A stretch of 64,000 nt of DNA. Source: Bacteroidales bacterium (lineage in GTDB: Bacteria > Bacteroidota > Bacteroidia > Bacteroidales > P3). Under the pieces are notes generated by a model. That model searched no databases, was not told the origin of the DNA, and worked only from the letters and a program-made list of their open reading frames with translations. How positions within the stretch are numbered: position 1 is the stretch's first letter; each line of letters starts with the position of its first letter. Location of the stretch: positions 1 to 64,000 of the forward strand of contig JAFWZP010000077.1 in NCBI GenBank assembly GCA_017522255.1, given 5' to 3'. The translations under genes and the position numbers were made by a program. Positions 32,549-64,000 of the stretch are shown piece by piece.

Positions 32549-32639
32549 ACAAATATTTTTGGTCTAACCAAGTGTTGTACAAAAAAATACGAAACTTTTT
32601 TTGTTGATGGTATTCTGCTGAGGGTAGCGTTGATTTTCC

Positions 32640-32730
32640 CTCGCGAGGAAATTTTCACAACCTCACGTAGTTTTTCAAACAACGTGGCGAGGAAATTTTT
32701 ACAACCTCGTGAGGAAAAATCCAACTTATA
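32640..32730. repeat. cgcgaggaaa-type inverted repeats
   Basis: Several alternating units (ctcgcgaggaaattttcaca, acctcacgtag, ggcgaggaaatttttacaac, ctcgtgaggaaa) form nested imperfect hairpins. The same unit family occurs at 13310-13410. It lies between divergent promoters and appears non-coding. Confidence 0.6.
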
Positions 32731-48419: not shown

Positions 48420-49142
48420 ATGAAAACATTTCTTTTGTCGTGTTTTGCTGCTTTATTGGCTTTGATAGGACTAAACAACTGTGCTGTTGCAACAAATAGT
48501 GATGTAATAACCCAAAATGTAAGGGTGTTGGAATTCTATAAGATAGAGGTCAATGGCATAGACGCTCAAATACGTTATTCGCAGTCCGATATTAATGAGG
48601 TGAATGTTACCACCAACGAGTATCTTCACGATATGCTTAGCATAGTGGTAGACGTTAACACATTGGTGATAAAACCAACAGATAAGTACAAAAAGAACCG
48701 AAAAAAAGCCACTTGTTTGATTATAGACATAACATCTACAAACATAGAGATGATAAAAAATAATAGCAATTCTAACATACAGTTTATGACCGAGATAAAC
48801 ACTCCCGAACTAAGAATAGAAAATATAGGAAAAGGCAGTATATCGGGTATGAAATCGGTAGATGTTGGTGTGTTGGAAATAGAAAATACCAATGCAGGAA
48901 ACATTACTATGGTGGGAAAGATAGAGAAAGCCGAAATCTTGTTGTTGGGTACCGGTAAATTAAACTTAGAAAACTGCTCGATAAAACGTTGCAAATGCGA
49001 GCATTCAGGAGTGGGAGATGTCTATGTATATGCTGTAGATACTTTGGATGTGAATATATTTGGCAAAGGTAACGTATACTATATGGGCGAGCCAAAAATA
49101 AAACAAGAAATATTAGGAACAGGCAGATTGATAAAACGTTAA
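48420..49142 (+). CDS. DUF2807 lipoprotein (head GIN domain)
   Basis: About 240 residues. The signal peptide ends with a lipobox-like GLNNCA. The rest is a run of short beta repeats (FYKIEVNGIDAQIRYSQSD, IENIGKGSISGMKSVDVGVL, LENCSIKRCKCEHSGVGDVY, LDVNIFGKGNVYYMGEPKI) typical of DUF2807, a right-handed beta-helix 'putative adhesin' domain. Lipidation suggests outer-membrane placement. An earlier ATG at 48405 would add five residues. Confidence 0.85.
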   Translation: MKTFLLSCFAALLALIGLNNCAVATNSDVITQNVRVLEFYKIEVNGIDAQIRYSQSDINEVNVTTNEYLHDMLSIVVDVNTLVIKPTDKYKKNRKKATCLIIDITSTNIEMIKNNSNSNIQFMTEINTPELRIENIGKGSISGMKSVDVGVLEIENTNAGNITMVGKIEKAEILLLGTGKLNLENCSIKRCKCEHSGVGDVYVYAVDTLDVNIFGKGNVYYMGEPKIKQEILGTGRLIKR

Positions 49143-49149
49143 TAAAGAT

Positions 49150-49611
49150 ATGAAAAAAAGAATATTACAAAAAGCATTGATAATATTATTAGCACTTGGT
49201 GCCACAACTATGGTGAGTTGCAAAGACGAACCGGAGGAAGATAATATAAGTAAATACGATATAGTGTATTACAAATGGCACTTGACAAAATTTGTGGATA
49301 TACCAAACAAGATAGAAAAATTTCCACAAATGAACTCCGATAATGTATATTGGATAAAGTTCGACAGTCAAAACGACAACTTTAGCGGTCGCACTTACTC
49401 CAACTCCATAAAAGGATTGTACCAAATGAATGTAGAAAATAAAACACTTGTTTTCAGTAATCTAACTACCGGAAATGCCCTTGAGCTATACGATGGCGAC
49501 AAGTTTTTTAGCACATTATCACTTATCCAAAACTTTCATCTATCGGGCGACACTTTACGTCTGCTATACAACAATAAGATGAATTATATGCAGTTCGAAA
49601 AAATAGAATAG
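49150..49611 (+). CDS. small lipoprotein of unknown function
   Basis: 153 residues with a lipobox (TTMVSCKDE). The mature part contains YDIVYYKWHLTKFVDIPNK and short strands like META- or lipocalin-type small beta proteins of Bacteroidota, ending in a YNNKMNYMQFEKIE strand. Seven bases after the DUF2807 gene. Function unknown. Confidence 0.75.
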   Translation: MKKRILQKALIILLALGATTMVSCKDEPEEDNISKYDIVYYKWHLTKFVDIPNKIEKFPQMNSDNVYWIKFDSQNDNFSGRTYSNSIKGLYQMNVENKTLVFSNLTTGNALELYDGDKFFSTLSLIQNFHLSGDTLRLLYNNKMNYMQFEKIE

Positions 49612-49647
49612 CATTTTTATTGATTATTGGCACAGTTGCCCTCCCTG

Positions 49648-49690
49648 AATAGGATATATATCTTACCTCAAAAAAGATATATATCCTATT
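49648..49690 (+). terminator. 17-bp perfect hairpin terminator
   Basis: aataggatatatatctt and aagatatatatcctatt around nine bases, then tttgtt. Closes the 46.5-49.6 kb gene group. Confidence 0.88.
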
Positions 49691-49757
49691 TTGTTAATAT
49701 GTATATATTATCTACCTAACATATATATGAAAAACAGCCTCCACACTTGCTGTCCCA

Positions 49758-49858
49758 AACCATGCGGTTTAGCCATCAAAAGTGCCATAGTTTTGATCCG
49801 TAACTATGGCACTTTTGGGTCGTAAACCACAGGGTTATGAATGCCAAACCGCATGGTT
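49758..49858. repeat. nested double palindrome
   Basis: An outer perfect pair aaccatgcggttt / aaaccgcatggtt (49758-49770, 49846-49858) encloses an inner perfect pair aaaagtgccatagtt / aactatggcactttt (49778-49792, 49802-49816). The inner word aaaagtgccata recurs in the hairpin at 63938-63976 and, partly, in repeat copy A that starts 24 bases further on. Confidence 0.85.
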
Positions 49859-49881
49859 ATGATTTATATCCTTTACCTGCC

Positions 49882-50083
49882 GGTTGAGAAGCTTGATACT
49901 ATGGTTGTAAATCTTGATGTAAAGAGTGAAAAAGTGGCACTTTTTGAGGTAGAATGTGGCACTTTTTACTTTAAAAAGTGCCACTTTTTACCAAAAATAT
50001 GGCACATTTTCGATGAAAACCTCAAAGTTTGCAACGATAACCTCAAGGATTGCGACGAAAAGGTAAAGGAATTTTTGTCTCAT
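49882..50083 (+). repeat. hairpin-core repeat, copy A
   Basis: The frame ggttgagaagcttgatacta, tggttgtaaatcttgatgta, agagtgaaaaagtg is followed by a core of gtggcacttttt-type words in both orientations, then gatgaaaacctcaaagtttg, caacgataacctcaagg, gaaaaggtaaaggaattttt. It ends on the stop codon of the gene at 50083. Same frame as copies B, C and D but with a different core. Confidence 0.8.
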
Positions 50084-51189
50084 TAGAACATTATCCCACA
50101 ATCGTAGGGTACAAGCACTTTACCTGTCATATCTGTTAAGCGATGTTCTTCTTGGCTGAATATGAATTTTACAGATGTTCCATTTCGTTTCACCTGTACT
50201 TTTTCTTCGACCAACCCTAACCAATCGTTCCAAAAATAGGCTGTTAGTTCGGCAGTGCTATCGCTTGTTATTTCTACCTTGTTTTTGATTGGTGGTAACT
50301 CTTCCAACTTACTTTTCAATTCTTGTGCTATTTTATTCCTGCCTACATAAAAACTTGATATTACCTCATCTTTTACCGAAAACACCAACCATGATTCAGA
50401 ATAATAAGAGTGCCAATATCTAAGTAAATATCTGTTTGATACCTCTAATTGGAAAGCGCTCCAAATACCTTCGGGAGTAAACTCCACATTCATATAATCG
50501 AGTATGTTTTCACTCTTTTTTAATGATAGTTTCTTTCTTTGTTTTGGTTTATCTGCTTTTCTACAGTAATAATGAGCTATACCACCCAATCCCCCTCTAC
50601 TATAAACCACATCCAACACATAGCCTGTTTTCATACTGACACCTTCCAAATGTGTCAATATTGTATCTATATTTCTCACGCTTTTTACTGCCTTACAGCT
50701 ATCTATCAATTCATCATTTTTTTTATTTAACGTCTTATTTAAGCTATTTACAGCTTTTCTATAGTCTATATATATTTCTCTGTACGAATCTATATAATTC
50801 GGCGTTGCGATCTTGAGTTGCCTTTCCCAAATATGATTACCTTTAATACTATACCAACGGTTATACATCTCCAATGTGTCAATATAACAATTGGAACTTA
50901 TAGTCAGTACGGTGTCAAATCTCTCAAATCCTACACCTCTAAACGTCAGTGTATATCTCCCGTTGGGAATACTATCTATATAATATCTACCACCAAGGTC
51001 GGTTTGACAGCCTCCTATGTGTATTCTTTCTGTAGTATCCATTAATATTACATTCATAAAAGGCTCTGCAGCTAATTTATTCTCGGAATACCTTGCCATA
51101 ACACAGCCTTTTACACTATACAGCTTTTCTTGAGCAAATGCTACTATGGGTAATAGAGTAAGTAGAAGTGCTATAATCTTATGTTTCAT
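50083..51189 (-). CDS. exported paralogue 4 (carboxypeptidase-regulatory-like domain)
   Basis: About 368 residues with signal peptide MKHKIIALLLTLLPIVAFAQ. Residues about 22-105 are a CarboxypepD_reg-like beta-sandwich (YSVKGCVMARYSENKLAAEP, GGCQTDLGGRYYIDSIPNGR, YTLTFRGVGFERFDTVLTIS). The remaining 260 residues (IYIDYRKAVNSLNKTLNKK, MNVEFTPEGIWSAFQLEVSN, SVKDEVISSFYVGRNK, SDSTAELTAYFWNDWLGLVE) are shared only with the three genes upstream. The start is the ATG at 51189, shared by the paralogues, rather than the earlier codon at 51222. Second gene of a two-gene operon, 11 bases after its partner. Function unknown; secreted or periplasmic. Confidence 0.8.
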   Translation of the reverse strand: MKHKIIALLLTLLPIVAFAQEKLYSVKGCVMARYSENKLAAEPFMNVILMDTTERIHIGGCQTDLGGRYYIDSIPNGRYTLTFRGVGFERFDTVLTISSNCYIDTLEMYNRWYSIKGNHIWERQLKIATPNYIDSYREIYIDYRKAVNSLNKTLNKKNDELIDSCKAVKSVRNIDTILTHLEGVSMKTGYVLDVVYSRGGLGGIAHYYCRKADKPKQRKKLSLKKSENILDYMNVEFTPEGIWSAFQLEVSNRYLLRYWHSYYSESWLVFSVKDEVISSFYVGRNKIAQELKSKLEELPPIKNKVEITSDSTAELTAYFWNDWLGLVEEKVQVKRNGTSVKFIFSQEEHRLTDMTGKVLVPYDCGIMF

Positions 51190-51200
51190 AATGATATATT

Positions 51201-52313
51201 TTAGTTTATTATTACGCCACAATTGTAGGGTACAAGCACTTTGCCTGTCATATCTGTTTGGTCATATTTTTCTTGAGTAAATAAGAATTTTACAGATGTA
51301 CCTTCTCGTTTTACTTGCACTTTCTCTTCTACCAACCCTAACCAATTGTTCCAAAAATAGGCTGTAAGTTCGGCAGTGCTATCGCTTATTATTTCTACCT
51401 TGTTTTTGATTGGAGGCAACTCTTCCAACTTGCCTTTCAATTCTTGTGCTGTTTTATTTCTGCCAACATAAAAACTTGATATTATCTCATCTTTTATAGA
51501 GAACACCAACCACGATTCGGAATAATAACCAGTCCCGAATTTATACAAATATCTGTTCGATATTTCCAATTGGAAGGCACTCCAAATTCCCTCGGGAGTA
51601 AACTCCACATTCATATAATTGAGTATGTTTTCACCCTTTATCATAGGAGGGTTCTTGCATTTTTTTGCCTCATTAGTCCTATGACAATAATAATGAGTGC
51701 CACCTCCTACGCCACCATAGTAATAATATACATCTAATACATAACCTGCTTTCAAACTTACTCCTCTCAAGTGAGTTAATATTGTATTTATATTTCTCAC
51801 TCTCTTTAATGCATTATGAAGTTCTTTATAAGGGTGTTGTATTTTTTTATCCAATGTCTTGTTAAAATCGTTTACTGCCGTTCTGTAATCTATGTATATT
51901 TCTCTGTATATATCAGCGTAGTCCGGAACACCTATTTCGAGTTGTCTTTCCCATATACGATTACCATTTATATTATACCAACGATTATATATTTTCACAG
52001 TATCGATACTGTAATCGGAATTTATAGTCAATATTGTATCATAACTCTCACTCCCTATAGCACTGACACTTAATAAATATCTTCCTTTGGGGATACTGTC
52101 TATATAATACATGCCATCAAAATCGGTTTTGCAATCTCCTATGTGTATCTTTTCTGTAGTATCTGTCACTATTACATTCATAAAGGGTTCAGGATATGAT
52201 TCATTCTCAGAATTTCTTATCACAACACAACCTTTTATACTATACAGATTTTCTTGAGCAAATGCTACTATTGGTAGCAATATTATTAACAATGTTATAA
52301 TCTTATGTTTCAT
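51201..52313 (-). CDS. exported paralogue 3
   Basis: About 370 residues; signal peptide MKHKIITLLIILLPIVAFAQ, then CarboxypepD_reg-like domain (YSIKGCVVIRNSENESYPEP, GDCKTDFDGMYYIDSIPKGR) and the shared C-terminal region (IYIDYRTAVNDFNKTLDKK, VEFTPEGIWSAFQLEISNRY, TAELTAYFWNNWLGLVEEKV). It is the closest relative of paralogue 4 and begins 34 bases after a TAATTTTG promoter box. The gene pair 3-4 mirrors pair 1-2, so the operon was duplicated as a unit. Confidence 0.8.
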   Translation of the reverse strand: MKHKIITLLIILLPIVAFAQENLYSIKGCVVIRNSENESYPEPFMNVIVTDTTEKIHIGDCKTDFDGMYYIDSIPKGRYLLSVSAIGSESYDTILTINSDYSIDTVKIYNRWYNINGNRIWERQLEIGVPDYADIYREIYIDYRTAVNDFNKTLDKKIQHPYKELHNALKRVRNINTILTHLRGVSLKAGYVLDVYYYYGGVGGGTHYYCHRTNEAKKCKNPPMIKGENILNYMNVEFTPEGIWSAFQLEISNRYLYKFGTGYYSESWLVFSIKDEIISSFYVGRNKTAQELKGKLEELPPIKNKVEIISDSTAELTAYFWNNWLGLVEEKVQVKREGTSVKFLFTQEKYDQTDMTGKVLVPYNCGVIIN

Positions 52314-52346
52314 ATATCGCAATTTTCTATATTAACTATGCGACTG

Positions 52347-52354
52347 CAAAATTA
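52347..52354 (-). promoter_or_regulatory. -7 box in a duplicated promoter module (copy 2)
   Basis: TAATTTTG on the minus strand, within a stretch of about 50 bases (plus strand tgcaaaattacacattttta, then ttcaataaatacgctgtatt) shared with 54904-54955 and, less exactly, with 57406-57455. Confidence 0.75.
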
Positions 52355-52426
52355 CACATTTTTATTCAATAAATACGCTGTATTGGATAAAAAATGCACA
52401 CTTTTTTCAAACCTTTCTACTAATAA

Positions 52427-52654
52427 TGGATAAAAGAGTAGGAGGGAGTAGCCCGTTGTTTTCCTTGAGCAAATGGTTGCGAAGCTTGATGCTATGGTTG
52501 AAAACTTTGAGGTAAGGTGTGAAAAAGTGTGATCGTTTGGGGTAAACGATCACATCGTTTACCCCAAACGATCACACCATTTCGATGAAAACCTCAAGCT
52601 TTGCAACGAAAAGGTAAAGTTTTACAACGAAAAGGTAAAGAAATTTTTGTCTTA
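52427..52654 (+). repeat. hairpin-core repeat, copy B
   Basis: Starts aggagggagtagcccgttgt, then ggttgcgaagcttgatgcta and gaaaactttgaggtaaggtg. The core is a near-perfect hairpin made of gtgtgatcgtttggggtaaa and its complement. The right frame is gatgaaaacctcaagctttg followed by gcaacgaaaaggtaaag twice. It ends on the stop codon of the gene at 52655. The frames themselves pair (ggttgcgaagcttga with tcaagctttgcaac). Confidence 0.85.
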
Positions 52655-53680
52655 TTAAAATAATATTCCACACTTGTAGGGTACTAAAACTTTATATGAT
52701 GTACGGGGATCGGGCTTCTCTTTGTTGTAGAATATAAATCTTACGGACTTCCCATCTTGCTCTACAAACACCTTTTCTTCAATCAATCCTTGCCAATCAT
52801 TCCAAAAATAGGCTGTAAGTTCGGCTGTACTATCGCTCGTTATTATTACTTGGTTTTTTAGTGGCAGTAGTTGCATTATCTTGTTTTTTGCTTCTTGTTT
52901 CTTTTCGTTCCGTTTTCCAAGACATGATGTTATTTCTTCTGTCGAAAATATTATAGAGAGAGCATCATAACAATAACTGCAAGTAATAGGTCTATAAAAA
53001 TACGACTTTTTCAGTTGAAACGCACTCCATATTCCTTGTGGAGTGAAGTCTACTTCAATGTATTCGTCCATCGTGTAAAGTTTGGTTATAGCTTTCTTTT
53101 TGCTAAACTTTTTGTGCATAACAATGCCCGAACCATATTCATACTTAGCTTTCCATCCTGCTTTAATATGTATTCCCTTTAGCGGAGATAGTAACGAATC
53201 TATGTTATAAGTAAGGTTTCCATCTTTTTTATAGAACCGGTTCAGAGCTTTTCTATATTCGAAGTATGTTTGTTCGTAAAAGTTAGTGTAGGTGCTATAT
53301 CTCTTATTTTGAACTATATTTATGTAATACTCCACTATTTTGTTCATCTTCCAGTAGAATATTGTATCCATATTCGTGTTGGATTCTATAGTTAATAATG
53401 TGTCGAATTTATCATATCCTATGTATCTAAGATTTAGAGTGTATTCTCCTTTTGGGATATTATAGATATGGTATTTTCCATTAGTATCAGTCTGACAACC
53501 ACCCACTATTTTTCCTGTACTGTCTGTCAGCATGACGTTTACAAATGGTACTGCACATAAATTATCATCAATATCAAAATCATTCTCTATGATATATCCT
53601 TCAATGCTGTATAATTCTTCCTGTGCAAATGTCGCTATAGGTAACAGAGTAAGTAGAAGTGCTATAATCTTATGTTTCAT
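52655..53680 (-). CDS. exported paralogue 2
   Basis: 341 residues; signal peptide MKHKIIALLLTLLPIATFAQ and CarboxypepD_reg-like domain (YSIEGYIIENDFDIDDNLCA, VGGCQTDTNGKYHIYNIPKG, YTLNLRYIGYDKFDTLLTIE). The most divergent of the four in the middle, but its end (EKPDPRTSYKVLVPYKCGIL) is nearly identical in DNA to the end of paralogue 1, over about 55 bases, which points to gene conversion. It follows paralogue 1 by 12 bases. Confidence 0.8.
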   Translation of the reverse strand: MKHKIIALLLTLLPIATFAQEELYSIEGYIIENDFDIDDNLCAVPFVNVMLTDSTGKIVGGCQTDTNGKYHIYNIPKGEYTLNLRYIGYDKFDTLLTIESNTNMDTIFYWKMNKIVEYYINIVQNKRYSTYTNFYEQTYFEYRKALNRFYKKDGNLTYNIDSLLSPLKGIHIKAGWKAKYEYGSGIVMHKKFSKKKAITKLYTMDEYIEVDFTPQGIWSAFQLKKSYFYRPITCSYCYDALSIIFSTEEITSCLGKRNEKKQEAKNKIMQLLPLKNQVIITSDSTAELTAYFWNDWQGLIEEKVFVEQDGKSVRFIFYNKEKPDPRTSYKVLVPYKCGILF

Positions 53681-53692
53681 GATGATATATTT

Positions 53693-54835
53693 TTAAAACA
53701 TTACTCCACAATTGTAGGGTACTAAAACTTTATATGATGTACGGGGATCGGGCTTCTCTTTGTTGTAATGAATAAATTGCACTGTTTCGTCTATACGTTT
53801 CACATGTACCTTTTCTTCTACAAGTCCTTTCCATTCACTCCAATAGTAATATGTTATGCTGGCATTGTCGGAATTTATTATCTTTATTTTATTTTTGATA
53901 GGAGGCACTTCGTTCAGCTTTTGCCAAAGGTCTTTATTAAATTTATCGTATTTAGATACGCTATGTAAAATTTCATCTTCTACCGAAAATACATGCCACG
54001 ATTCAAAATAATAAGTATGCCACGACTTAAATAAATATCTCTTGGATACATTAAGCAGAAAAGCACTCCAAATACCTTCGGGTGTAAAATCTACATTCAT
54101 ATAATTCAGTATATTGTCGTTAAAGTATTTTGAGCATTCTTTATTCAATTTTGGCTCATTGGTTTTGCGACAATAATAGTGTGCTAAACCATTACCCCAA
54201 TTAGAAGAATGAAATATATCTAACACATATCCGGGTTTTAAACTGATGTCTTTCAAATGAGTTAGCATTACATTTACATTCTCTATGTCGTTCAGAGTGT
54301 CAACAAAATCTTCAAACGATGCACCTCTGTCTTCAATACGCTTTTGCAATTCTTCGTTCAAGCTATCTACAGTTTTTCTATAATCTATGTATATTTCTCT
54401 GTAGAAATCTGAATAATCAGGTGTTGGCATCTTGAGTTGTCTTTGCCAAATATAATGGTCGGCAATGTGTAAATCTGTATTGTTACGTATATTTAATGTG
54501 TCAAAGTCACAAACCGAGTCTATGGTAATTATCGTATCGGTATAGCTATCAATACTCCATGCAAAAACCAATCTATATGTCCCTTTGGGAATATCAGTAG
54601 CTTCAAAATATCCATTGCTATCCATCGTAAATTCGGAAACAAGAGCTTCATTTGTATCTTTCACCTGCATATAGGAAAAACCATACGCAAAAGGATTATT
54701 TATAATTCCTTTAATGGAAACTGTTTCAATATTATTCTTTGAGGTTGTAGTATTAGTCTTATCGCTCCTTTTGGTAGTGCAACATACAGAACTTACTCCA
54801 ATAACAACTGAAATAAAAATAATTAACTTTTTCAT
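53693..54835 (-). CDS. lipoprotein paralogue 1
   Basis: 380 residues. Unlike the other three, it has a lipoprotein signal peptide (MKKLIIFISVVIGVSSVCCT), so this member is lipid-anchored. Then come a CarboxypepD_reg-like domain (SIKGIINNPFAYGFSYMQVK, EFTMDSNGYFEATDIPKGTY) and the shared C-terminal region (EIYIDYRKTVDSLNEELQKR, VDFTPEGIWSAFLLNVSKRY, YYYWSEWKGLVEEKVHVKR). First gene of its operon, 71 bases after the promoter box at 54907. Confidence 0.8.
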   Translation of the reverse strand: MKKLIIFISVVIGVSSVCCTTKRSDKTNTTTSKNNIETVSIKGIINNPFAYGFSYMQVKDTNEALVSEFTMDSNGYFEATDIPKGTYRLVFAWSIDSYTDTIITIDSVCDFDTLNIRNNTDLHIADHYIWQRQLKMPTPDYSDFYREIYIDYRKTVDSLNEELQKRIEDRGASFEDFVDTLNDIENVNVMLTHLKDISLKPGYVLDIFHSSNWGNGLAHYYCRKTNEPKLNKECSKYFNDNILNYMNVDFTPEGIWSAFLLNVSKRYLFKSWHTYYFESWHVFSVEDEILHSVSKYDKFNKDLWQKLNEVPPIKNKIKIINSDNASITYYYWSEWKGLVEEKVHVKRIDETVQFIHYNKEKPDPRTSYKVLVPYNCGVMF

Positions 54836-54906
54836 TTTACGACTATTTTATTTATAACAAACTAATTATAGCTATATTGGTATGTAACTATAGTGATTTT
54901 GATTTG

Positions 54907-54914
54907 CAAAATTA
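54907..54914 (-). promoter_or_regulatory. -7 box in the duplicated promoter module (copy 1)
   Basis: TAATTTTG on the minus strand, in the same 50-base module as at 52347. Confidence 0.75.
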
Positions 54915-54980
54915 CACATTTTTATTCAATAAATACGCTGTATTGGATAAAAATGTATGTTTTTAAACCTTTCTACTAAT

Positions 54981-55209
54981 AATGAGTGAAAGATTAGGAG
55001 GGAGTAGCCCGTTGTTTTCCCTGAGCAAACGGTTGCGAAGCTTGATGCTATGGTTGAAAACTTTGAGGTAGGGTGCGAAAAAGTGTGTCCTTTTAGGGTA
55101 AAAAGAGTGTCTTTTTAGTGCAAAAAGACACTCTTTTTTGATGAAAACCTCAACCTTTGCAACGATAAAATTAAGGATTGCAACGGTAAGGTAAAGGAAT
55201 TTTTTGGGA
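54981..55209 (+). repeat. hairpin-core repeat, copy C
   Basis: Same left frame as copy B (taggagggagtagcccgttg, ggttgcgaagcttgatgcta, gaaaactttgaggtagggtg). The core is built of gtgtccttttagggtaaaaa, gagtgtcttttt and aaaaagacactctttt. The right frame is gatgaaaacctcaacctttg, gcaacgataaaattaagg, then gtaaaggaatttttt. The stretch from the promoter module through the left frame is shared with copy B (tctactaataatg). Confidence 0.85.
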
Positions 55210-55332
55210 ATAAAGTATTCTGATACATTAGTAACAGAGTTGGCTTATGTAATCTTCTGACTTTTATTATTCAAACAATAAAACCAAAAACGTAGCGTTA
55301 GTTCGGTATTAAACAAAAAAAATAGAATGATT

Positions 55333-56082
55333 ATGAAGAAAATATTTTTCGTGTGTGTTGCTGTTATTGCATTGGCAGCATGCAAGAGCGGAAGTCGCAA
55401 CGGAGTTACAGTTTGTAAGAGTAAAATACAAAATATTACTCCTGCGAAAATAGTACCTCTACCTAAAGAAATAGACTTTGAAGAGATAGCAAATACGTGG
55501 AAAATTTTTGCTAAAATCCCTTATGATAGTTTGAATGACCATCAGCGTGACATCATTGATTTATGTGAGATTGATGACGTACTTATGCATTTCTATTCAG
55601 CTTCGTGTAGTTGGTATTGTGGTGGCATTATAGACACAGTGGTTGCTTCTTCATGCAAAAATGCTGACCAATTCGGAAATTATGAGGGATACAATACTCA
55701 CGATTGGAATATCTATAGTGCATGGGTTACGAATTTAAACAACAGTGGTGTAGGCGAATCTATTACATATACATTTCCTGGTAATTGTCCTCGTATAACT
55801 ACGATTATTATTTTAAATGGATATACCTGCGATACGAATGATTGGCAAGACTATTCGCGTGTAAAGAAACTTAAGATGTATTATGATGGTAAACCATACG
55901 CCATATTAGAACTTCAAGATACTCGAGATGAACAAGATTTTAAAGTTGGTTTGTTGGGATATCGTGATATAGAGCACCCTCAATGGACATTGCAATTCGA
56001 AATACTTGAAGTATACCCTGGTAGAAAATATCAAAACACCGCCATCACAGAGCTATATTTTGATGGAGTGGATGTTCATTGA
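55333..56082 (+). CDS. lipoprotein with discoidin-like (NADase-type glycan-binding) domain
   Basis: About 249 residues; lipobox in VIALAACKSG. The C-terminal half (about 100-250) contains NTHDWNIYSAWVTNLNNSGV, GESITYTFPGNCPRITTIII, NGYTCDTNDWQDYSRVKKLK and QWTLQFEILEVYPGRKYQNT, typical of the discoidin-like domain annotated as NADase-type glycan-binding. No NADase catalytic part is present. It is probably a surface carbohydrate-binding lipoprotein. Start ATG 55333 is preferred over 55327. It stands alone between repeat copy C and the ATPase gene. Confidence 0.78.
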   Translation: MKKIFFVCVAVIALAACKSGSRNGVTVCKSKIQNITPAKIVPLPKEIDFEEIANTWKIFAKIPYDSLNDHQRDIIDLCEIDDVLMHFYSASCSWYCGGIIDTVVASSCKNADQFGNYEGYNTHDWNIYSAWVTNLNNSGVGESITYTFPGNCPRITTIIILNGYTCDTNDWQDYSRVKKLKMYYDGKPYAILELQDTRDEQDFKVGLLGYRDIEHPQWTLQFEILEVYPGRKYQNTAITELYFDGVDVH

Positions 56083-56165
56083 TAAAAATACTATTGTAAC
56101 AAGATTGTTTTTTATTGTTTTGCTCGTTACAATAGTGGTGGTATAAGTTCTTCTTTTGTCTTTCG

Positions 56166-57383
56166 TTAAAACTTCCAAGCCGGGATAACATTTATGCTGT
56201 AGCCTCGCTTTTCTATTGTGCGTTCGTCGTTGGCGGTAACTATGGTTAGGTTTTTGCATTTCAGTTCTTCGGCACATTCCACTATGCTGTCCACTTCGCG
56301 TTTCTCGGTCTTGGGGTTGCTTAGGTCGTAGCATACTTGTATAAGGCGTTCTATGGTGGTGCCATTGCGGGTTACGAAGTCCGTTTCTTTGTCGTTTCTC
56401 GATTTGTAGTAGAATAGTGTTTTTTCGGTCTTGTAGCCTCGGCGTAAGAGTTCGATAAATATGTAGTTTTCGAGTAGTCGACCCATGTTTTCGCTTAGGT
56501 TGAATGCCTTGGCTGTTACAAAACCATTGTCGATAACGTATATCTTTTGTGCCGATTTCTTCATCACTTTCAGTTTGTTGTTGTAGCGTGGCAGGTAAAA
56601 GAAAAGATAAGGCTCGTGTAGGTAGTCCATAAATTTCTTTGTGGTGGTAGTGCTACTTAGGTTCAAAGCCTTGGCAACATCGTTGGCCGAAAGTGAGTTG
56701 CAAAAGTTCGAAAGCAGGTATAGTGCAACGTCGTTTAGCTCGGTGGTGTTTCTTACGTTGTGCCTTTTCGATACATCTTTCCACACTATGGAGTCGAACA
56801 ATGTGTTGAGGTAGTTTTGGGTTATGCTGCGTGTTGCTATGGTTTCGGGATAGCCACCGTTTTTCAAATAATCGGTGATGGCTATATAATCGGTGTGGGC
56901 ATAGCTCGTCCATTGCAAATATTCCGCAAAGCAGAACGGCAACATCTCCACTTGTATATATCTGCCTGTAAGCACTGTTGCCATTTCGCTACTCAGCATC
57001 TTGGCATTGCTGCCGGTTATCACAAGGTTTTTGCCTCGGCGGTATAGCTTGGAAACCCATAGGTCCCAGTTCTCCAAATTCTGTATCTCGTCCAGTAGTA
57101 TATATTCATATCCTTGGTATACATCGTCCAATGTTTGCATAACAAGGTCTTCGTCCCATTTTGAAAGCAGTTGGTTATCGTCGAAGTTGAGGTAGGCAAA
57201 GTTGGAGTCTTTTAGTAGCAACAATGCGTATGTGGACTTACCCACACGGCGTGGACCGCTTATTAGTTTTATAAGCGGATTGCTTAGCAGCTCCTGTTTG
57301 TTATATTTTGTGTCCCTATCCAGATAAGGGCGAGCCATCAAGCTATCACGTTCATTGCGTTGGTTTAGTATCGTATTTCTCAT
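56166..57383 (-). CDS. AAA ATPase with DUF4143 domain
   Basis: 405 residues. Walker A in KLISGPRRVGKSTYALLLL (about residue 45), Walker B YILLDEIQNLENWDLWV, sensor ITGSNAKMLSSEMA, then a winged-helix-like part and the C-terminal DUF4143 domain (LENYIFIELLRRGYKTEKTL, KSRNDKETDFVTRNGTTIER), which resembles restriction-enzyme-like nucleases. These ATPases are abundant, variable in number and mobile in Bacteroidota; function unknown. An ATG at 57338 (MARPYLDRD) is an alternative start. A second, broken member is at 60101-60412. Confidence 0.88.
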   Translation of the reverse strand: MRNTILNQRNERDSLMARPYLDRDTKYNKQELLSNPLIKLISGPRRVGKSTYALLLLKDSNFAYLNFDDNQLLSKWDEDLVMQTLDDVYQGYEYILLDEIQNLENWDLWVSKLYRRGKNLVITGSNAKMLSSEMATVLTGRYIQVEMLPFCFAEYLQWTSYAHTDYIAITDYLKNGGYPETIATRSITQNYLNTLFDSIVWKDVSKRHNVRNTTELNDVALYLLSNFCNSLSANDVAKALNLSSTTTTKKFMDYLHEPYLFFYLPRYNNKLKVMKKSAQKIYVIDNGFVTAKAFNLSENMGRLLENYIFIELLRRGYKTEKTLFYYKSRNDKETDFVTRNGTTIERLIQVCYDLSNPKTEKREVDSIVECAEELKCKNLTIVTANDERTIEKRGYSINVIPAWKF

Positions 57384-57408
57384 ATACCGTACATTAAGTT
57401 TGCGACTG

Positions 57409-57416
57409 CAAAATTA
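57409..57416 (-). promoter_or_regulatory. -7 box in a third copy of the promoter module
   Basis: TAATTTTG on the minus strand, 26 bases before the ATPase ATG. The surrounding 50 bases match the modules at 52347 and 54907, so an unrelated gene shares the paralogues' promoter. Confidence 0.7.
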
Positions 57417-57442
57417 CACATTTTTATTCAATAAATGCGTTA

Positions 57443-57475
57443 TATTGGATAAAAAAGTGCATTTTTTATCCAATA
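57443..57475. repeat. 14-bp palindrome at the promoter module
   Basis: tattggataaaaaa and ttttttatccaata pair perfectly around gtgca, upstream of the -7 box on the minus strand. Single copies of tattggataaaaa occur at the same place in the other two modules. A regulator-binding site is possible. Confidence 0.7.
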
Positions 57476-57548
57476 CAACACTTAAAATGGATAAAAAAGC
57501 AACATATTTCAATGAAAAACGCAAGGCACGCAAAAGATAAATATTTGG

Positions 57549-57583
57549 TCCGAACCTGAAGTTTTTAGAAGTTGCCTATAGCT
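57549..57583. repeat. single MITE-type end
   Basis: gtccgaacctgaagttttta followed by gaagttgcctatag. Its complement (ctataggcaacttctaaaaa) matches the ends at 16267, 60077 and 63615. The rest of the gap 57584-57972 has only the promoter box at 57678 and no gene. Confidence 0.6.
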
Positions 57584-57677
57584 ATATATTTAAAAAACGG
57601 TGAAAGTGGTTGATGTAAATATATATGATTTAGGTGAAAAATATTGAAATAAATTTGGTTTATAACGAAATGATTAG

Positions 57678-57685
57678 TAACTTTG
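57678..57685 (+). promoter_or_regulatory. Bacteroidota -7 box (TAACTTTG)
   Basis: TAACTTTG about 290 bases before the sigma-factor ATG. If used, the leader is long; a closer ECF-type promoter could also exist. Confidence 0.4.
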
Positions 57686-57972
57686 CAAGGTCTTTTGGAC
57701 TACAAATAGAGCTACAAAAATACTTAATTTCTACTATTATAGATTATAAAATTATGAACATTCATTGAGAAATCAATAAAGATACTTTGTCTTGCACCAA
57801 AAAAAAGTTTATACGATAGTTAACAAAGGTAACAATCTAAATCAGCAGATCATAAAGCATTCAAATGCTAAAATCGTATTTTTTTATTTTCCATGTTGTG
57901 ATTTGCCCATTTGTTTCGCCTAATAAAGCAAACAAATGTTCAACATTATAAAATTTCAAAGAAATATGAATT

Positions 57973-58452
57973 ATGGATAACAGCGAGCAAAGGTTTAAAG
58001 AAATGATATGTCGGCATAAGGATTTTATATGGCATATTTGTAGTAGTTATCGTATGGGTGCAGCATGGGAGGTGAGTGATATGTTTCAGGAAGTGTTGTG
58101 TATGTTATGGCGATATTATCCTCAGTTTGATGGTCGAAGTGGCGAGCGAACATGGATATACAAGGTGGCCAACAATACTCTGATATCTCTGAAACGCAGA
58201 GCAGCAAACCGCCAACAGACCGATGATGCTATTCCCGAAGGATGCTACAATGACGATAAGACCGAATATAACGACTTTATGCGACTTATCGAAACACTGG
58301 AAGAAAAAGATTACAGCATAGTAAAAGCTCATCTTGATGGTTTTGATTATGCCGAGATTGCCCAAATGGTGGAAATATCGGTGGCAGCAGTGTCGATGAG
58401 GCTTAGCCGTGCAAAACAAAAACTACGTAAAATGTATGAAGATGGAAAATAG
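57973..58452 (+). CDS. ECF-family RNA polymerase sigma factor
   Basis: 159 residues. Sigma region 2 (FKEMICRHKDFIWHICSSYR, SDMFQEVLCMLWRYYPQFDG, GERTWIYKVANNTLISLKRR) and region 4 (YSIVKAHLDGFDYAEIAQMV, EISVAAVSMRLSRAKQKLRK) with no region 3, as in ECF factors. It directs RNA polymerase to a stress or nutrient regulon. It overlaps the next gene, a membrane protein likely to be its anti-sigma factor. Confidence 0.92.
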   Translation: MDNSEQRFKEMICRHKDFIWHICSSYRMGAAWEVSDMFQEVLCMLWRYYPQFDGRSGERTWIYKVANNTLISLKRRAANRQQTDDAIPEGCYNDDKTEYNDFMRLIETLEEKDYSIVKAHLDGFDYAEIAQMVEISVAAVSMRLSRAKQKLRKMYEDGK

Positions 58453-58789
58453 AGATTTTGAAAAGCAATGGAACAATTGCAAAGAAGTTTATGCAAAGGC
58501 AAAATGTCCGTTGGGCAACAACGAACTAGAAGAATTTATCAATCGAGCAATGATGGAAACGCAGCATACTGCCGCCAAGCCAAATGCCAAGAGTAGAAGG
58601 CTTTGGGTATGGAGTATCTCGGCTGTGGCAGCATGTATGGCAATGCTACTAGTGGTAAATACCGTAGTGGCCAAGCCTGCTGATGAATTTCAACGCATAA
58701 CCATTGATGGGCAGGAAATAATATTTGCCTGCAACAACGGGTGTTCGCCCGAAAATACAGTAGAAATGTTTAACAGTATAATAAAGTAA
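58442..58789 (+). CDS. single-pass membrane protein, likely anti-sigma factor
   Basis: About 115 residues. A soluble N-terminus of about 55 residues (ENRDFEKQWNNCKEVYAKAK), one membrane helix (LWVWSISAVAACMAMLLVVN) and a short outer domain with two Cys (FACNNGCSPENT). Start codons at 58442 or 58436 overlap the sigma gene by 11 or 17 bases, the usual coupling of sigma and anti-sigma. No zinc-finger motif. Assignment is by position and topology. Confidence 0.72.
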   Translation: MENRDFEKQWNNCKEVYAKAKCPLGNNELEEFINRAMMETQHTAAKPNAKSRRLWVWSISAVAACMAMLLVVNTVVAKPADEFQRITIDGQEIIFACNNGCSPENTVEMFNSIIK

Positions 58790-58794
58790 AGAGT

Positions 58795-59433
58795 ATGAAA
58801 CGAATATTTTTATTGCTAATGATGGCAGCAGTAGTGCTATCGTGCGAAAGAAACGAGATGGAAAGCCCTTACACCACAGCAGCCAAAGAGATATATAAAA
58901 AGTATGCTCCACGCGAAAACCTTACAGTGGCACTCTTGGGCGAGTACAAAGGCTATAATGCCGTAATGCTGCAAGCCCATACCGACGAAGAGTGGGAGTT
59001 TATATGTAAAGAGTTTGACATAGACCCCGAAAAGAAGAAGGACATCGATGACGACTCGACTAAAGAGAAGAAGAATCTTGATTTGGGCGATACACTGCAG
59101 TTTGAAGTTGAAGGCTTGGGTGATATACTGAAGATAATAATAGAAACAGCTTTGGATTCTGTAGAGGAAGAAGTTAAGGCTTTAGCAAAAGAAGAGAGTG
59201 ACACTTCGATATACTCTAACTTTGATGCTAAGAGAAAGGAAATAAAAGATAAAATGGCTAAAGATCAACTATTCGGAGAAGATAAACAGCAACGTGTGTG
59301 TAGCTACGATGTGGAAAAGCGAATTCTTTGGGTATATTATTACAATAGTTTTACTGAACTTAACCATATGACTAAGGATATGTTTGATGCTGCTAGCAAA
59401 GGTGAAGAGTTTGAACAAACAACAACGTTGTAA
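58795..59433 (+). CDS. lipoprotein in the sigma operon
   Basis: 212 residues, lipobox VVLSCERN. Mostly charged and helical (KKDIDDDSTKEKKNLDLGDT, IIETALDSVEEEVKALAKEE), with a small N-terminal domain LTVALLGEYKGYNAVMLQAH. Family not recognised. Starts five bases after the anti-sigma-like gene, so it is part of the sigma operon, perhaps sensing envelope conditions. Confidence 0.78.
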   Translation: MKRIFLLLMMAAVVLSCERNEMESPYTTAAKEIYKKYAPRENLTVALLGEYKGYNAVMLQAHTDEEWEFICKEFDIDPEKKKDIDDDSTKEKKNLDLGDTLQFEVEGLGDILKIIIETALDSVEEEVKALAKEESDTSIYSNFDAKRKEIKDKMAKDQLFGEDKQQRVCSYDVEKRILWVYYYNSFTELNHMTKDMFDAASKGEEFEQTTTL

Positions 59434-59435
59434 TT

Positions 59436-59855
59436 ATGAAGAATGCATTAATGATATTAACGTCCCTATTGATAACAATTGCCACTATGGCACAAACGGG
59501 GCGATACGAGGTTAAGGGATGTTCGCTAAAATTTTCGATAGAAAATACCGATACTGTTTTTAACCTTGATAATGATGCTACTCTGTTTGCCTTGTTTGCA
59601 ACCGTATTTCAATTCAAAGCTTTTGATATTGAACCTAAGATAATAGAGATAACACCTTCGGAAATAAGAGCCTGCAACAAGGAAGGAGAAGTTGTGGATA
59701 GCGTCGCAATACAATTGGTGTCGAAGAAGAAAAACAAATGGATATACTCCGATGGGGTAGAGCTACAACGTAAAAGCAAAGACGAATATACATTGATAGT
59801 GGATTCTGAAAAGATAATAGAATTTCACCTTATACCACTGAAGGAAAGGGACTAA
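59436..59855 (+). CDS. small exported protein in the sigma operon
   Basis: 139 residues with signal peptide (MKNALMILTSLLITIATMAQ), then a beta-rich domain (GRYEVKGCSLKFSIENTDTV, IEITPSEIRACNKEGEVVDS, YTLIVDSEKIIEFHLIPLKE). Family unknown. Two bases after the lipoprotein gene; last member of the four-gene operon. Confidence 0.76.
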   Translation: MKNALMILTSLLITIATMAQTGRYEVKGCSLKFSIENTDTVFNLDNDATLFALFATVFQFKAFDIEPKIIEITPSEIRACNKEGEVVDSVAIQLVSKKKNKWIYSDGVELQRKSKDEYTLIVDSEKIIEFHLIPLKERD

Positions 59856-59878
59856 AACGCCTACAGATAATCCCGATT

Positions 59879-59923
59879 ATTTATCCCATATATGTAGTGT
59901 TGAGCTATATGTATGGGATAAAT
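59879..59923 (+). terminator. long hairpin after the sigma operon
   Basis: atttatcccata and tatgggataaat pair perfectly, and the stem extends inward with G:U pairs. It resembles the hairpin at 3700-3739. There is no clear T run, so it could also be a repeat. Confidence 0.55.
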
Positions 59924-60076
59924 GAATTACAAGTTAATCTAAAAAATTACATGATTACTACAAATCATATACTTTTTCCTACAAAGAAATGAATATTGCC
60001 GATTCCTTTCTTTGTTAAAATAACTTCGGCGAAGTCAACAACTCAAAAGTTTCAAAGAACATTCTTCGATTATTCC

Positions 60077-60110
60077 GAACCTAAAGTTTTTTTAAGTTTC
60101 CTATAGCTTG
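60077..60110. repeat. MITE-type end overlapping an ATPase fragment's stop
   Basis: ttccgaacctaaagtttttt followed by taagtttcctatag: a variant of the end at 57549-57583. It contributes the stop codon (TAG on the minus strand) to the ATPase remnant. Between 59924 and 60077 there is no gene. Confidence 0.55.
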
Positions 60111-60412
60111 TCGAAGTAACCACCTACGCCACATAGGGGAATGTTCTCCATCCATTCTTGGTTTCGGTAGGGCAGCATCGAGCAGCGGAGTCCTCGCATA
60201 CCACTGCCGGCAAAGTCCACGTTGATGAATTGCGACAGCGATTTACTTTTTACATTTTCTTCGGCTTTCACTTCTACGGGCACAATCCGCTCCGATGTTT
60301 GCACCACAAAGTCTATTTCCATTGTCGAACCCTCTTTGGTGTAATAGTATATCGGAAACTTTTGATGATTGGCTTTTGATTTATAACTTACACATTTTCT
60401 TTGATATAACAA
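60101..60412 (-). pseudogene. C-terminal remnant of an AAA/DUF4143 ATPase
   Basis: The frame reads YYYTKEGSTMEIDFVVQTSE, RIVPVEVKAEENVKSKSLSQ, FAGSGMRGLRCSMLPYRNQE, NIPLCGVGGYFDKL, the typical end of DUF4143 ATPases (nuclease-like E..VVEVKA... motif). No Walker A/B part is upstream; instead there are 33-bp tandem repeats and repeat copy D. A gene of about 400 residues has been reduced to its last 80 or so. Confidence 0.8.
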
Positions 60413-60420
60413 AATAAATT

Positions 60421-60519
60421 ACATTTTTATGGGGGAATAATACTAGTTTTGTTACACTTTTAAGGGGGAATAATGTTGGTTTTGTTACACTTTTATGAGG
60501 GAATAATATTGGTTTTGTT
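60421..60519. repeat. 33-bp tandem repeat, three units
   Basis: Three direct copies of a 33-base unit (acacttttaagggggaataa then tgttggttttgtt) at 60421-60453, 60454-60486 and 60487-60519, differing at a few bases. The length is a multiple of three, and the minus-strand frame stays open, giving an 11-residue repeat VTKPTLFPLKS, but no start or conserved gene was found around it. Confidence 0.85.
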
Positions 60520-60583
60520 ACGATGTGGATAATTGTTTTTGTCGTTGTTATGCAATTTGATTTGAGTTTATCACTACAACACC

Positions 60584-60805
60584 GATAAAAGAGTAGGAGG
60601 GAGTAGCCCGTTGTTTTCCTTGAGCAAGCGGTTGCGAAGTTTGATGCTATGGTTGAAAACCTTGAGGTAAGGTGTGAAAAAGTGTGTCCTTTTAGGGTAA
60701 AAGAGTGTCTTTTTGGGGTAAAAAGACACTCTTTTTTAGGTGAAAAGACACTCTTTTTTGATGAAAACCTCAAGCTTTGCAACGAAAAGATCAAGGAATT
60801 TTATC
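60584..60805 (+). repeat. hairpin-core repeat, copy D
   Basis: The left frame (gtaggagggagtagcccgtt, ggttgcgaagtttgatgcta, gaaaaccttgaggtaaggtg) and right frame (gatgaaaacctcaagctttg, gcaacgaaaagatcaagg) are as in copy B. The core has agagtgtctttttggggt with two copies of gacactctttttt. Same orientation as A-C although 5.6 kb from C. An open frame of 60 codons runs through it but is not conserved in the other copies. Confidence 0.85.
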
Positions 60806-61244: not shown

Positions 61245-63077
61245 TTATAAGCTATAATAGTATTTTCTAATTTTTTCGGCCATTAAGGTTCTGCGCTTTT
61301 CGAGGAATTCTCCATAACTAGTGTGATCCATCTCGAACACATCCTCAGGAATACAGTTCATAGCAAGGTTTTGCTTCAACTCATCAAGTTTTGTGATTGA
61401 GCCGCATTCAACAACCTTTGTATCGCACTGCTTTAACGCCTTTTGGAAATAATTTGCTGGAGCTTGTTTGCCAATAGACACGTTCACAGGGCGGTCTAGG
61501 TATGCATAGTTTGCCTCCTGGTTGTACTGGTTTTTCTCGAAACCATTATCTTTGAGATACTGCTTAGGGAAGATATGGTGAACATCGCCACTCAGCTCAA
61601 TAAGCTCCTTAACGCGGACATTTTGAGATAACAACGAAGTATCATTGAAGTACACCTGTGCAGCCAAATATACGAGGTATGTAGGATTGTTTGTCGATGG
61701 GTTTGTCAAATCTTGCGGAATCTGCACCTTCCAGAAGTTTTCCGAAAGAATTGCCGCCTCAATATTTTTCAATGTTTTAACAACTCCTATCTCGCTAATT
61801 TGTCGCAAATCTTTTGCGAATGCCGATTCCGGGGAACTGCTATATCTACCTGTCAAAACCGAAAGAACATACCAACGTTGTACAACTCTCTTTATCTCTG
61901 ATACAGAGACTTCTTTGCTCTCGTGCAAAATCAAATAAAGTGCATACGCAAAGTCGATGGCCATATTCGAGTTTATCAACTTATTGCTAATAAATCCCGC
62001 AGATTTTATGGCAATAACAAACTGCTTGAAGTTGTTCATGTTGATAAATTCGGCAACACCCTTATATAGTTTATTGTAAGTATCTTCGATAATTTCTTCC
62101 TTAAATTCACGGGTATCAAAATCACGACCAGACAACATTTTTACCAACTCAGCCAACTTTGCTCGCTGGAATTGGTGCATGAATGCAACACGGATAATAT
62201 CATCGCACTGTGGATCATAGACTGTTTCTCTATCATCTTTGAGCCACTTCAAATTCTTGATATAACCTTCAGGCTTGTTGCAGAACTCCTTGTCGTGCGA
62301 AAGAATATATTCGTAGTAAGACGGATCAACGGCAAGGTGACTGAAATAGTCGATAACTTTGCGCAAAGTATTGCCACCATGAGCCTCATCAGCTGCAATT
62401 TTAGACATTACGAAATCGCCCTGATTCAATGTTGTCCCCTTTGAGTTAATACGCACGAAAATATCAGTTACTATATCTATTTCAAGTGCTTCCGATAGCT
62501 CTATGATGCCAATAGATTGGTTTCGAATAGTATTGAGTTTTGTTAAAACACTATCCAGTCCTTTCGGACTAATAATGTCTGAATTTGCTTTACAATATTC
62601 TGTAACAAACTCATACCTATTAAATTCATCGCTAAAAATTTTCGCAATATCTGGTATCCAATGCTTACTTTTTAAGTGAGCAGGCGTTTGCACAGCAAAT
62701 AATTCCGCCTCATCCTCACCCGACAATGCAGCAATAGGATTGAATGCGATCTTTACACGACAAAGTTTGTACTCCTCGTTGTATATTTCTCTCTCTGCAA
62801 TGGCCGTCATCAACGCAGTAATGCGTTGCTGGCCATCTATGAGTATCTTTTTACCCGAAGATATGGTACCATCTTTGAGTTTGACATTTGGATTCTTCCA
62901 TAGAATTATATAACCTACGGGAAAACCCCTATATAGCGAATCCATGAGATCACGTACTTGCTTACTTTTCCATACAAAGGGGCGTTGAATTTCTGGAATG
63001 GCGATATCATTAGCTTTAATTAGTCCAAGAATAGCACTAACTGTCATTGAGGTTGTAGTAAATTTTTCACAATTCAT
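61245..63077 (-). CDS. DUF262/HNH protein, GmrSD-like type IV restriction enzyme
   Basis: 610 residues. The N-terminal DUF262 domain (ParB-like NTPase) shows AIPEIQRPFVWKSKQVRDLM, GYIILWKNP and ILIDGQQRITALMTAIAERE. A helical middle part follows, then a DUF1524-type HNH nuclease segment near residue 515 (SGDVHHIFPKQYLKDNGF, NYAYLDRPVNVSIGKQAP). Fused DUF262-DUF1524 proteins such as GmrSD cut phage DNA with modified bases using NTP hydrolysis. This makes it a stand-alone defence gene; actual specificity is unknown. A TAATTTTG box lies 116 bases upstream. Neighbouring arrays and MITE ends support acquisition by transfer. Confidence 0.86.
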   Translation of the reverse strand: MNCEKFTTTSMTVSAILGLIKANDIAIPEIQRPFVWKSKQVRDLMDSLYRGFPVGYIILWKNPNVKLKDGTISSGKKILIDGQQRITALMTAIAEREIYNEEYKLCRVKIAFNPIAALSGEDEAELFAVQTPAHLKSKHWIPDIAKIFSDEFNRYEFVTEYCKANSDIISPKGLDSVLTKLNTIRNQSIGIIELSEALEIDIVTDIFVRINSKGTTLNQGDFVMSKIAADEAHGGNTLRKVIDYFSHLAVDPSYYEYILSHDKEFCNKPEGYIKNLKWLKDDRETVYDPQCDDIIRVAFMHQFQRAKLAELVKMLSGRDFDTREFKEEIIEDTYNKLYKGVAEFINMNNFKQFVIAIKSAGFISNKLINSNMAIDFAYALYLILHESKEVSVSEIKRVVQRWYVLSVLTGRYSSSPESAFAKDLRQISEIGVVKTLKNIEAAILSENFWKVQIPQDLTNPSTNNPTYLVYLAAQVYFNDTSLLSQNVRVKELIELSGDVHHIFPKQYLKDNGFEKNQYNQEANYAYLDRPVNVSIGKQAPANYFQKALKQCDTKVVECGSITKLDELKQNLAMNCIPEDVFEMDHTSYGEFLEKRRTLMAEKIRKYYYSL

Positions 63078-63308: not shown

Positions 63309-63418
63309 TTGGCGTAAGGTCGTTACGTCATTGCCGTAACGGCGTTACGCTAATGCCGTTATGGCGTTACGCTATTGGCGTAAGGTCGTTACGCTAATGC
63401 CGTAACGGCGTTACGCAC
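63309..63418. repeat. five 22-bp partly palindromic tandem repeats
   Basis: Five units in exact 22-base register starting at 63309, 63331, 63353, 63375 and 63397. The core is gccgtaacggcgttacgc or ggcgtaaggtcgttacgc, each with an internal inverted repeat (cgtaa/ttacg). Units 2 and 5 are the most alike, as are 1 and 4. GC content is far above the surroundings. There are no spacers, so it is not a CRISPR array; it looks like iterons or a multi-operator. It lies about 230 bases upstream of the DUF262 start. Confidence 0.9.
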
Positions 63419-63886: not shown

Positions 63887-63937
63887 TTACAATAAATACC
63901 CCACACTTAGCCATCAAAACTATGTGAGTTTTAACCC

Positions 63938-63976
63938 AAAAGTGCCATACTTTTGGGTCGAGAGTATGGCACTTTT
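63938..63976. repeat. aaaagtgccata hairpin at the window's end
   Basis: aaaagtgccatac and gtatggcactttt pair perfectly around 13 bases. Preceded by ccacacttagccatcaaaac, like the ccacacttg at 49741 before the nested palindrome. It is probably another copy of that repeat, cut by the window edge. Confidence 0.75.
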
Positions 63977-64000
63977 GAAGTGTAAGTTACGTGGATTTTT

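What the first reader, a model, noticed from the sequence alone, without database searches (positions are those of the whole stretch)
49882..60805. A repeat family with a conserved frame and interchangeable hairpin cores
Four copies (49882-50083, 52427-52654, 54981-55209, 60584-60805), all in the same orientation, share about 90 bases on the left and 60 on the right. The two frames also pair with each other (ggttgcgaagcttga with tcaagctttgcaac). Between them the core differs: gtggcactttt words in A, a gtgtgatcgtttgggg hairpin in B, gtgtctttttt/gacactc words in C and D. Each core is self-complementary. It looks as if the core is rewritten while the frame is kept, with both core arms changed together, as expected for a structured RNA, a recombination site or a recognition tag. 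I know no described family with this form.
Basis: partly seen in the sequence, partly recalled or inferred. Interest (0 to 1): 0.75.

Follow-up and report, generated by a model that had tools for sequence, protein, structure and literature searches.

The report
Framed hairpin repeats with rewritten cores
Four intergenic DNA repeats in an uncultured Bacteroidales bacterium keep a fixed outer stem while their inner hairpin, built of 22-letter blocks, is rewritten between copies and between species; they belong to a genome-wide class of such block arrays, and the rewriting looks like a DNA copying and recombination process rather than a conserved RNA.

Summary
Four same-orientation copies (A-D) fold as one long hairpin whose outer stem is the shared frame and whose inner stem is a copy-specific core. 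The core is quantised: 61 or 82-83 nt, i.e. 17 + 22n, made of 17-nt near-palindromic words plus 5-nt linkers. At the same locus in other species of the genus the left frame stays about 90-100% identical while the core word is swapped (A: GTGGCAC to GTCCGAC/GTCGGAC; D: GAGTGTC to GTGGCAC). A-D are one family of a larger class: the genome's tandem-repeat spectrum peaks sharply at 22 nt (23 arrays in 298 kb, 0-3 at most other lags, none in a control), almost all intergenic, with unrelated words; several other genera of the same family show 21-23 nt, sampled other families do not. The structured-RNA reading is not supported: stem mismatches show no G.U bias on either strand (P=0.54), both strands fold equally well, Rfam is silent, and a 40-copy sister family shows no covariation. 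No RAYT transposase, no BrickBuilt-type ends. Best reading: non-coding mobile-like palindromic repeats whose cores are rewritten by template switching, unit slippage and recombination between frames. Function and the origin of the two-helical-turn phase remain open.

The parts
49882..49928 (+). copy A, left frame (47 nt)
49929..50010 (+). copy A, core: 4 modules, word GTGGCAC/GTGCCAC
50011..50083 (+). copy A, right frame (21-nt phased), abuts the 3' end of gene 50083-51222(-)
52427..52521 (+). copy B, left frame with the extension shared with C and D
52522..52582 (+). copy B, core: 3 modules, word GTGATCGTTTGGGG and its complement; 24-bp inner stem
52583..52654 (+). copy B, right frame (21-nt phased), abuts the 3' end of gene 52655-53680(-)
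54981..55077 (+). copy C, left frame with extension
55078..55138 (+). copy C, core: 3 modules, GTGTGTC, GAGTGTC, GACACTC
55139..55209 (+). copy C, right frame
60584..60676 (+). copy D, left frame with extension
60677..60758 (+). copy D, core: 4 modules, GTGTGTC, GAGTGTC, GACACTC, GACACTC
60759..60805 (+). copy D, right frame
49758..49860 (+). adjacent array of another family in the same class (22-nt modules AAACCATGCGGTTT / AAAAGTGCCATAGTTTT); its 83-bp core has dozens of dispersed copies in G000, G001 and G004
63309..63416 (+). further array of the class, GTAACGGCGTTAC x 5, period 22
63907..63985 (+). further array of the AAAAGTGCCATA family
32639..32717 (+). further array, CCTCGCGAGG words, period 22

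Best explanation
A-D are copies of a non-coding, intergenic DNA element: a conserved frame (outer arms of a long inverted repeat, 21-nt phased) around a core of three or four 22-nt modules, each a 17-nt near-palindromic word plus a 5-nt linker. They are one family of a class of such arrays spread over this genome and over several genera of its Bacteroidales family. Shown: architecture, quantised core length, genome-wide 22-nt peak, core replacement at conserved loci, synteny breaks at the element, absence of an RNA-strand signature. Inferred: the core is rewritten at DNA level. Within a core, snap-back template switching copies one arm onto the other and slippage adds or removes a 22-nt unit; between copies, homologous recombination through the shared frames exchanges whole cores together with a flank. 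The element most likely behaves as a passive or selfish palindromic repeat and recombination joint, not as a conserved RNA.
For: Left frames nearly constant, cores swapped at the same locus in other species. Core lengths 61 or 82-83 = 17 + 22n. In L103 against L088 (frames 98-99% identical) all six core changes end in Watson-Crick pairs of the array-wide hairpin and turn an imperfect middle module (AAAAAGTGCGATCTTTT) into a perfect palindrome (AAAACATCCGATGTTTT), as a template switch would (such events are described in PMC8794818 and PMC7202029). A_G001 modules 2 and 3 share an identical 18-nt stretch where G000's differ, i.e. direct homogenisation. In locus A of G005 the A-type left flank continues into the B-type right flank and gene; G004 has a third right flank. 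Mismatch symmetry G.T 129 against A.C 100, sum|difference| 75 against null 75.2, P=0.54; power 0.93 for a 70:30 bias. Both strands fold equally (mean z -5.2 and -5.8 over 14 related copies). Lag-22 peak with no signal in a Markov control, mostly intergenic, in other genera.
Against: No donor copy of the swapped core was identified, so the exchange itself is inferred. Template switching is inferred from outcome, not from mutation data. No transposase or target-site duplication was found for A-D; two transposase families were checked, others were not. Pure mutational drift does not explain why unrelated words keep a 21-22 nt period. Some lag-22 arrays lack clear dyad symmetry: 5 of 23 do not stand clear of shuffles, and a stricter per-unit dyad test is significant for only 2 of 25.
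Confidence: 0.55

Rival explanations
1. Arrays of binding sites for a dimeric DNA-binding or nucleoid protein: two-helical-turn spacing puts all palindromes on one face of the duplex, and the word differs because several related proteins, or a shape-reading protein, are involved.
For: Period 21-22(-23) kept across unrelated words and genera; palindromic modules; intergenic placement; strand symmetry of mismatches fits double-stranded recognition. In the 40-copy sister family a promoter-like TAnnTTTG motif reads outwards more often than inwards (34 against 12).
Against: The word is swapped at one locus within one genus, hard to reconcile with a site-specific protein; arrays lie in convergent, co-directional and divergent regions alike; no protein candidate.
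Confidence: 0.2
2. Bidirectional transcription terminators or 3' insulators: A5-stem-T5 hairpins that stop transcription from both sides, with any stem sequence allowed.
For: A and D lie between convergent genes, and A and B abut stop codons of minus-strand genes; the terminator-like scan finds hairpin plus T-run at A (+) and B (-), 14 sites against 6.1 +/- 2.5 expected in the region. Free choice of stem sequence would permit rewriting.
Against: C lies between divergent genes; class-wide only 2 arrays were called in convergent gaps, most being co-directional or divergent; stems are A+T-rich and the T-runs are part of the stem; a module array is not needed for termination.
Confidence: 0.12
3. 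A structured RNA.
For: Very stable long hairpin, z -5.7 to -9.8; concerted arm changes.
Against: No strand asymmetry, equal minus-strand folding, no Rfam family, and positions next to the only conserved stem of the sister family vary independently (TG 19, CA 8, TA 6, CG 6).
Confidence: 0.06
4. A site of dedicated recombination (integrase, attC-like or other) that swaps cores as cassettes.
For: Conserved ends with inverted symmetry and variable hairpin middle, same-orientation copies separated by genes; synteny breaks at the element.
Against: Apparent breakpoints lie within the frame and differ between events; ends do not read as attC R boxes (by eye, not searched with a model); ordinary homologous recombination between repeats explains the same data.
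Confidence: 0.07

Closest known systems
BrickBuilt MITE of Porphyromonas gingivalis (PMC4596501)
   Same: [quoted passage not shown] another Bacteroidales; not in Rfam
   Different: Its 23-nt repeat is one sequence family with 12-nt IS5-like terminal inverted repeats (GAGACCTTTGCA); here the unit is 22 nt, the word differs from copy to copy, and that terminal repeat is not found above chance
BOX elements of Streptococcus pneumoniae (PMC3049150)
   Same: boxA and boxC as fixed ends around a variable number of tandem boxB modules; folded stem-loops; intergenic
   Different: BOX differs mainly in the number of boxB modules and boxB has one consensus model; here module number is 3-4 and the module sequence itself is replaced
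Neisserial intergenic mosaic elements (dRS3 + RS; PMC3898611)
   Same: Short conserved inverted-repeat units combined with variable intergenic sequences; proposed recombination points
   Different: dRS3 is one 20-bp motif with RS elements of 30-160 bp; here frames and cores are both phased module arrays
REP / REPIN with RAYT transposase (PMC3116915)
   Same: High-copy intergenic palindromes
   Different: No Y1 (RAYT-type) transposase in the 98.7%-complete genome; arrays of 3-10 modules rather than paired REPs

Membership tests
BrickBuilt MITE | Terminal inverted repeat GAGACCTTTGCA / TGCAAAGGTCTC shared with IS5-family elements | tested here: not met
   3 matches with up to 2 mismatches in 64 kb (expected 3.8), none at A-D; a single DDE_Tnp_1 gene with a stop codon in the genome
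BrickBuilt MITE | 23-nt tandem repeat of the P. gingivalis sequence | tested here: not met
   unit is 22 nt and the word differs between copies; the BrickBuilt sequence itself was not held for comparison
BrickBuilt MITE | Leader - tandem array - tail, intergenic, long stem-loop | tested here: met
REPIN/RAYT | Y1 RAYT transposase in the genome | tested here: not met
   no PF01797 match, controls positive
MITE (generic) | Terminal inverted repeats | tested here: inconclusive
   GGTTGCGAAGCTTGA / TCAAGCTTTGCAACG ends pair, but they are part of the frame arms and no matching transposon was identified
MITE (generic) | Target-site duplication / empty site | tested here: inconclusive
   None found for A-D; a sister element at C1:6400 is absent in G005 and present in four species, duplication not resolvable; G003 carries the tandem paralogues with 12-nt gaps and no frame between them
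BOX element | boxA and boxC ends with tandem boxB | not tested
   Similar layout only; no sequence comparison made
Rfam structured RNA | Match to any of 4227 families | tested here: not met
   nothing at the elements above chance level
Structured RNA (generic) | Strand-specific pairing (G.U tolerated, A.C not) | tested here: not met
Protein-coding repeat | Open frame kept in all copies | tested here: not met
   frame open through A and D, stops in B and C

The most novel reading that the evidence does not exclude
This Bacteroidales family has a machinery, copying or binding, with a two-helical-turn ruler that makes or reads 21-22 nt phased palindromes whatever their sequence, so that array words can be rewritten while phase and symmetry are kept.
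Probability: 0.18. Interest if true: 0.8.

Novelty: new variant of a known kind. Interest (0 to 1): 0.5.

Why it matters
It gives a natural case in which hairpin arms co-vary strongly without evidence for an RNA, so concerted arm changes alone should not be read as proof of a structured RNA. It also exposes a family-wide class of 21-22 nt phased arrays in uncultured Bacteroidales and shows that they mark points where synteny and gene clusters change.

Tried and rejected
Coding (coiled-coil peptide): the translation looks heptad-like, but stops in B and C. Rfam families: none. REPIN/RAYT: no transposase. BrickBuilt ends: at chance. Viral origin: exact left-frame pattern absent from viral contigs. 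The strict core pattern in named genomes found one record, a Bacteroidales MAG; the looser pattern is at background in 297 phylum-wide genomes. A consensus-unit dyad test was too blunt, because words alternate and phase drifts. An ortholog search with gene 61245-63077 found no relative in the genus.

Full report
OBSERVATION. Reading the sequence and repeat finding confirm four same-orientation copies, A 49882-50083, B 52427-52654, C 54981-55209, D 60584-60805. B, C and D share about 95 nt on the left; A shares only the inner 47 nt. Between a 47-nt left frame (GGTTG.. to ..GTGTGAA) and the right frame (GATGAAAACCTCAA..) the core is 82, 61, 61 and 82 nt, i.e. 17 + 22n (within 1 nt): three or four 17-nt words joined by 5-nt linkers (mostly GGGGT-like or ACCCC-like). 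The frame arms are 21-nt phased. Each copy folds as one long hairpin, frame arms outside, core inside (A z -7.0, B -9.8, D -5.7, no shuffle as good); the minus strand of D folds as well (z -8.9). Only these four close copies exist in the 2.68-Mb genome, plus one at C84 with 70% identity.

THE CLASS. Self-comparison of 298 kb of the genome (window plus loci L038-L057) at every lag gives a sharp peak at 22 nt: 23 arrays at lag 22 and 11 at lag 21 with at least 28/44 identity, 0-3 at other lags from 15 to 30, and none in Markov-simulated sequence. The window was chosen because it holds such repeats; about 14 of the 23 lie outside it, which would scale to about 160 per genome (inference). Lag-22 arrays lie almost only in intergenic gaps or probably spurious short ORFs, in co-directional, divergent and convergent settings. 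Words are unrelated between arrays: CCTCGCGAGG, CTAACGTCGTTAG, CCCAAAGTCTTTGGG, AAACCATGCGGTTT. In 18 of 23 own arrays the inverted-repeat score stands clear of shuffles; the remaining ones, and a stricter per-unit dyad test, show that dyad symmetry is common but not universal. Other genera of the same family show the same period with other words (G007 21 nt; G054 21-23; G019 21; G042 21-22); two genomes of genus g2 (G006, G060) and one of g11 (G025) show no 21/22 excess, and 195 kb from seven other families of the class show only one match each at lags 21 and 22.

CORE REPLACEMENT. Locus A is present in three more species. In G000 and G001 the word is GTGGCAC/GTGCCAC, in G004 and G005 GTCCGAC/GTCGGAC, while the sequence just to the left, including most of the left frame, is nearly identical. 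Locus D in G005 has a GTGGCAC core and one module fewer, with 45/47 identity in the left frame. In the window, B and C are 96% identical in the left frame and 69% in the core. In a related subfamily (L088, L092, L103) frames are 90-99% identical, and the six L103/L088 core changes all end in Watson-Crick pairs of the array-wide hairpin, turning an imperfect middle module into a perfect palindrome. That is what DNA template switching produces (PMC8794818, PMC7202029).

RECOMBINATION JOINT. The same left flank of locus A continues into the 3' end of gene 1 (G000, G001), into the gene-3 type found right of B in the window (G005), and into a third sequence (G004). In G003 four homologous tandem genes are separated by 12 nt with no frame. 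In G005 the contig carrying own 46000-49795 reaches the D element about 1.8 kb later. The elements therefore sit at breakpoints; whether they cause the breaks is inferred.

RNA OR DNA. For a stem kept as RNA, G.U is tolerated on the transcribed strand and A.C is not (established knowledge of RNA helices). Over 49 arrays the aligned stems have 129 G.T and 100 A.C mismatches, and the per-array imbalance equals the null (75 against 75.2, P=0.54); a 70:30 bias would have been detected with power 0.93. Both strands fold equally (mean z -5.2 and -5.8). A sister family with an ACCCTA..TAGGGT frame, 40 copies of which were fetched from G001 and G004, gives a consensus structure of one short stem only, with neighbouring positions varying independently. 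No Rfam family matches. Caveat: arrays of one family are not independent, and a hairpin that worked equally from both strands would also be symmetric.

MECHANISM. I commit to DNA-level rewriting: snap-back template switching and unit slippage inside the core, and recombination between copies through the frames. Steps shown: frame conservation, core replacement, quantised length, symmetry of mismatches, synteny change. Steps inferred: the copying events, the donors, the lack of a function. What this does not explain is why unrelated words keep a 21-22 nt period, two turns of B-DNA; a protein lattice or a copying ruler is possible but unsupported.

RELATION TO KNOWN FAMILIES. The layout is close to BrickBuilt (PMC4596501), BOX (PMC3049150) and NIME (PMC3898611). 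Membership in BrickBuilt fails on the terminal repeat and on the unit; REPIN/RAYT fails on the transposase. I therefore call it a new variant of a known kind: modular intergenic palindromic repeats, distinguished by rewritten words and by a family-wide 21-22 nt phase.

Noticed in passing
G000:C1:6417-6634 (L038), G001/G004 loci L163-L202: High-copy sister element of about 220 nt: ACCCTA..TAGGGT hairpin frame plus four 22-nt CCCTCGTGATGTAGATGAAATT modules; 40 copies were fetched from G001 and G004 and more were listed. Present in four species at one orthologous site and absent in G005.
   Followed up: partly
window 49758-49840: 83-bp array (AAAAGTGCCATAGTTTT modules) with dozens of dispersed copies at 72-100% identity in G000, G001 and G004, directly left of copy A.
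   Followed up: partly
window 60419-60521: Three 33-nt direct repeats (TTACACTTTTATGGGGGAATAATATTGGTTTTG) just left of copy D; two units in G005.
   Followed up: no
window 52328-52394, 54888-54954, 57390-57456: Shared upstream segment with TTATTCAATAAA / TATTGGATAAAA before three minus-strand genes; possibly a common promoter or operator.
   Followed up: no
G005:C120 end (L009) and G005:C69 start (L033): Copy D of G005 appears split by an insertion sequence with ends CAGGGCAAACGCACCAC and a likely 10-bp duplication TCAAGCTTTG; inferred from two contig ends.
   Followed up: partly
window 57538, 60063, 63847; L047 about 10600-10664: Very high-copy motif family near TTTTTAGAAGTTGCC (203 first-look candidates in the own genome for a query that includes the L047 stretch), perhaps an element end; it was not shown that both stretches are the same motif.
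   Followed up: no
window 50083-54835: Four tandem paralogues, two with weak to moderate CarboxypepD_reg-like matches, whose number and order differ between species; element copies A, B and C flank the two pairs.
   Followed up: partly
window 61245-63077: GmrSD-like protein (N-terminal domain) without a DNA match in the other genomes of the genus, flanked by copy D and the 63309 array.
   Followed up: no
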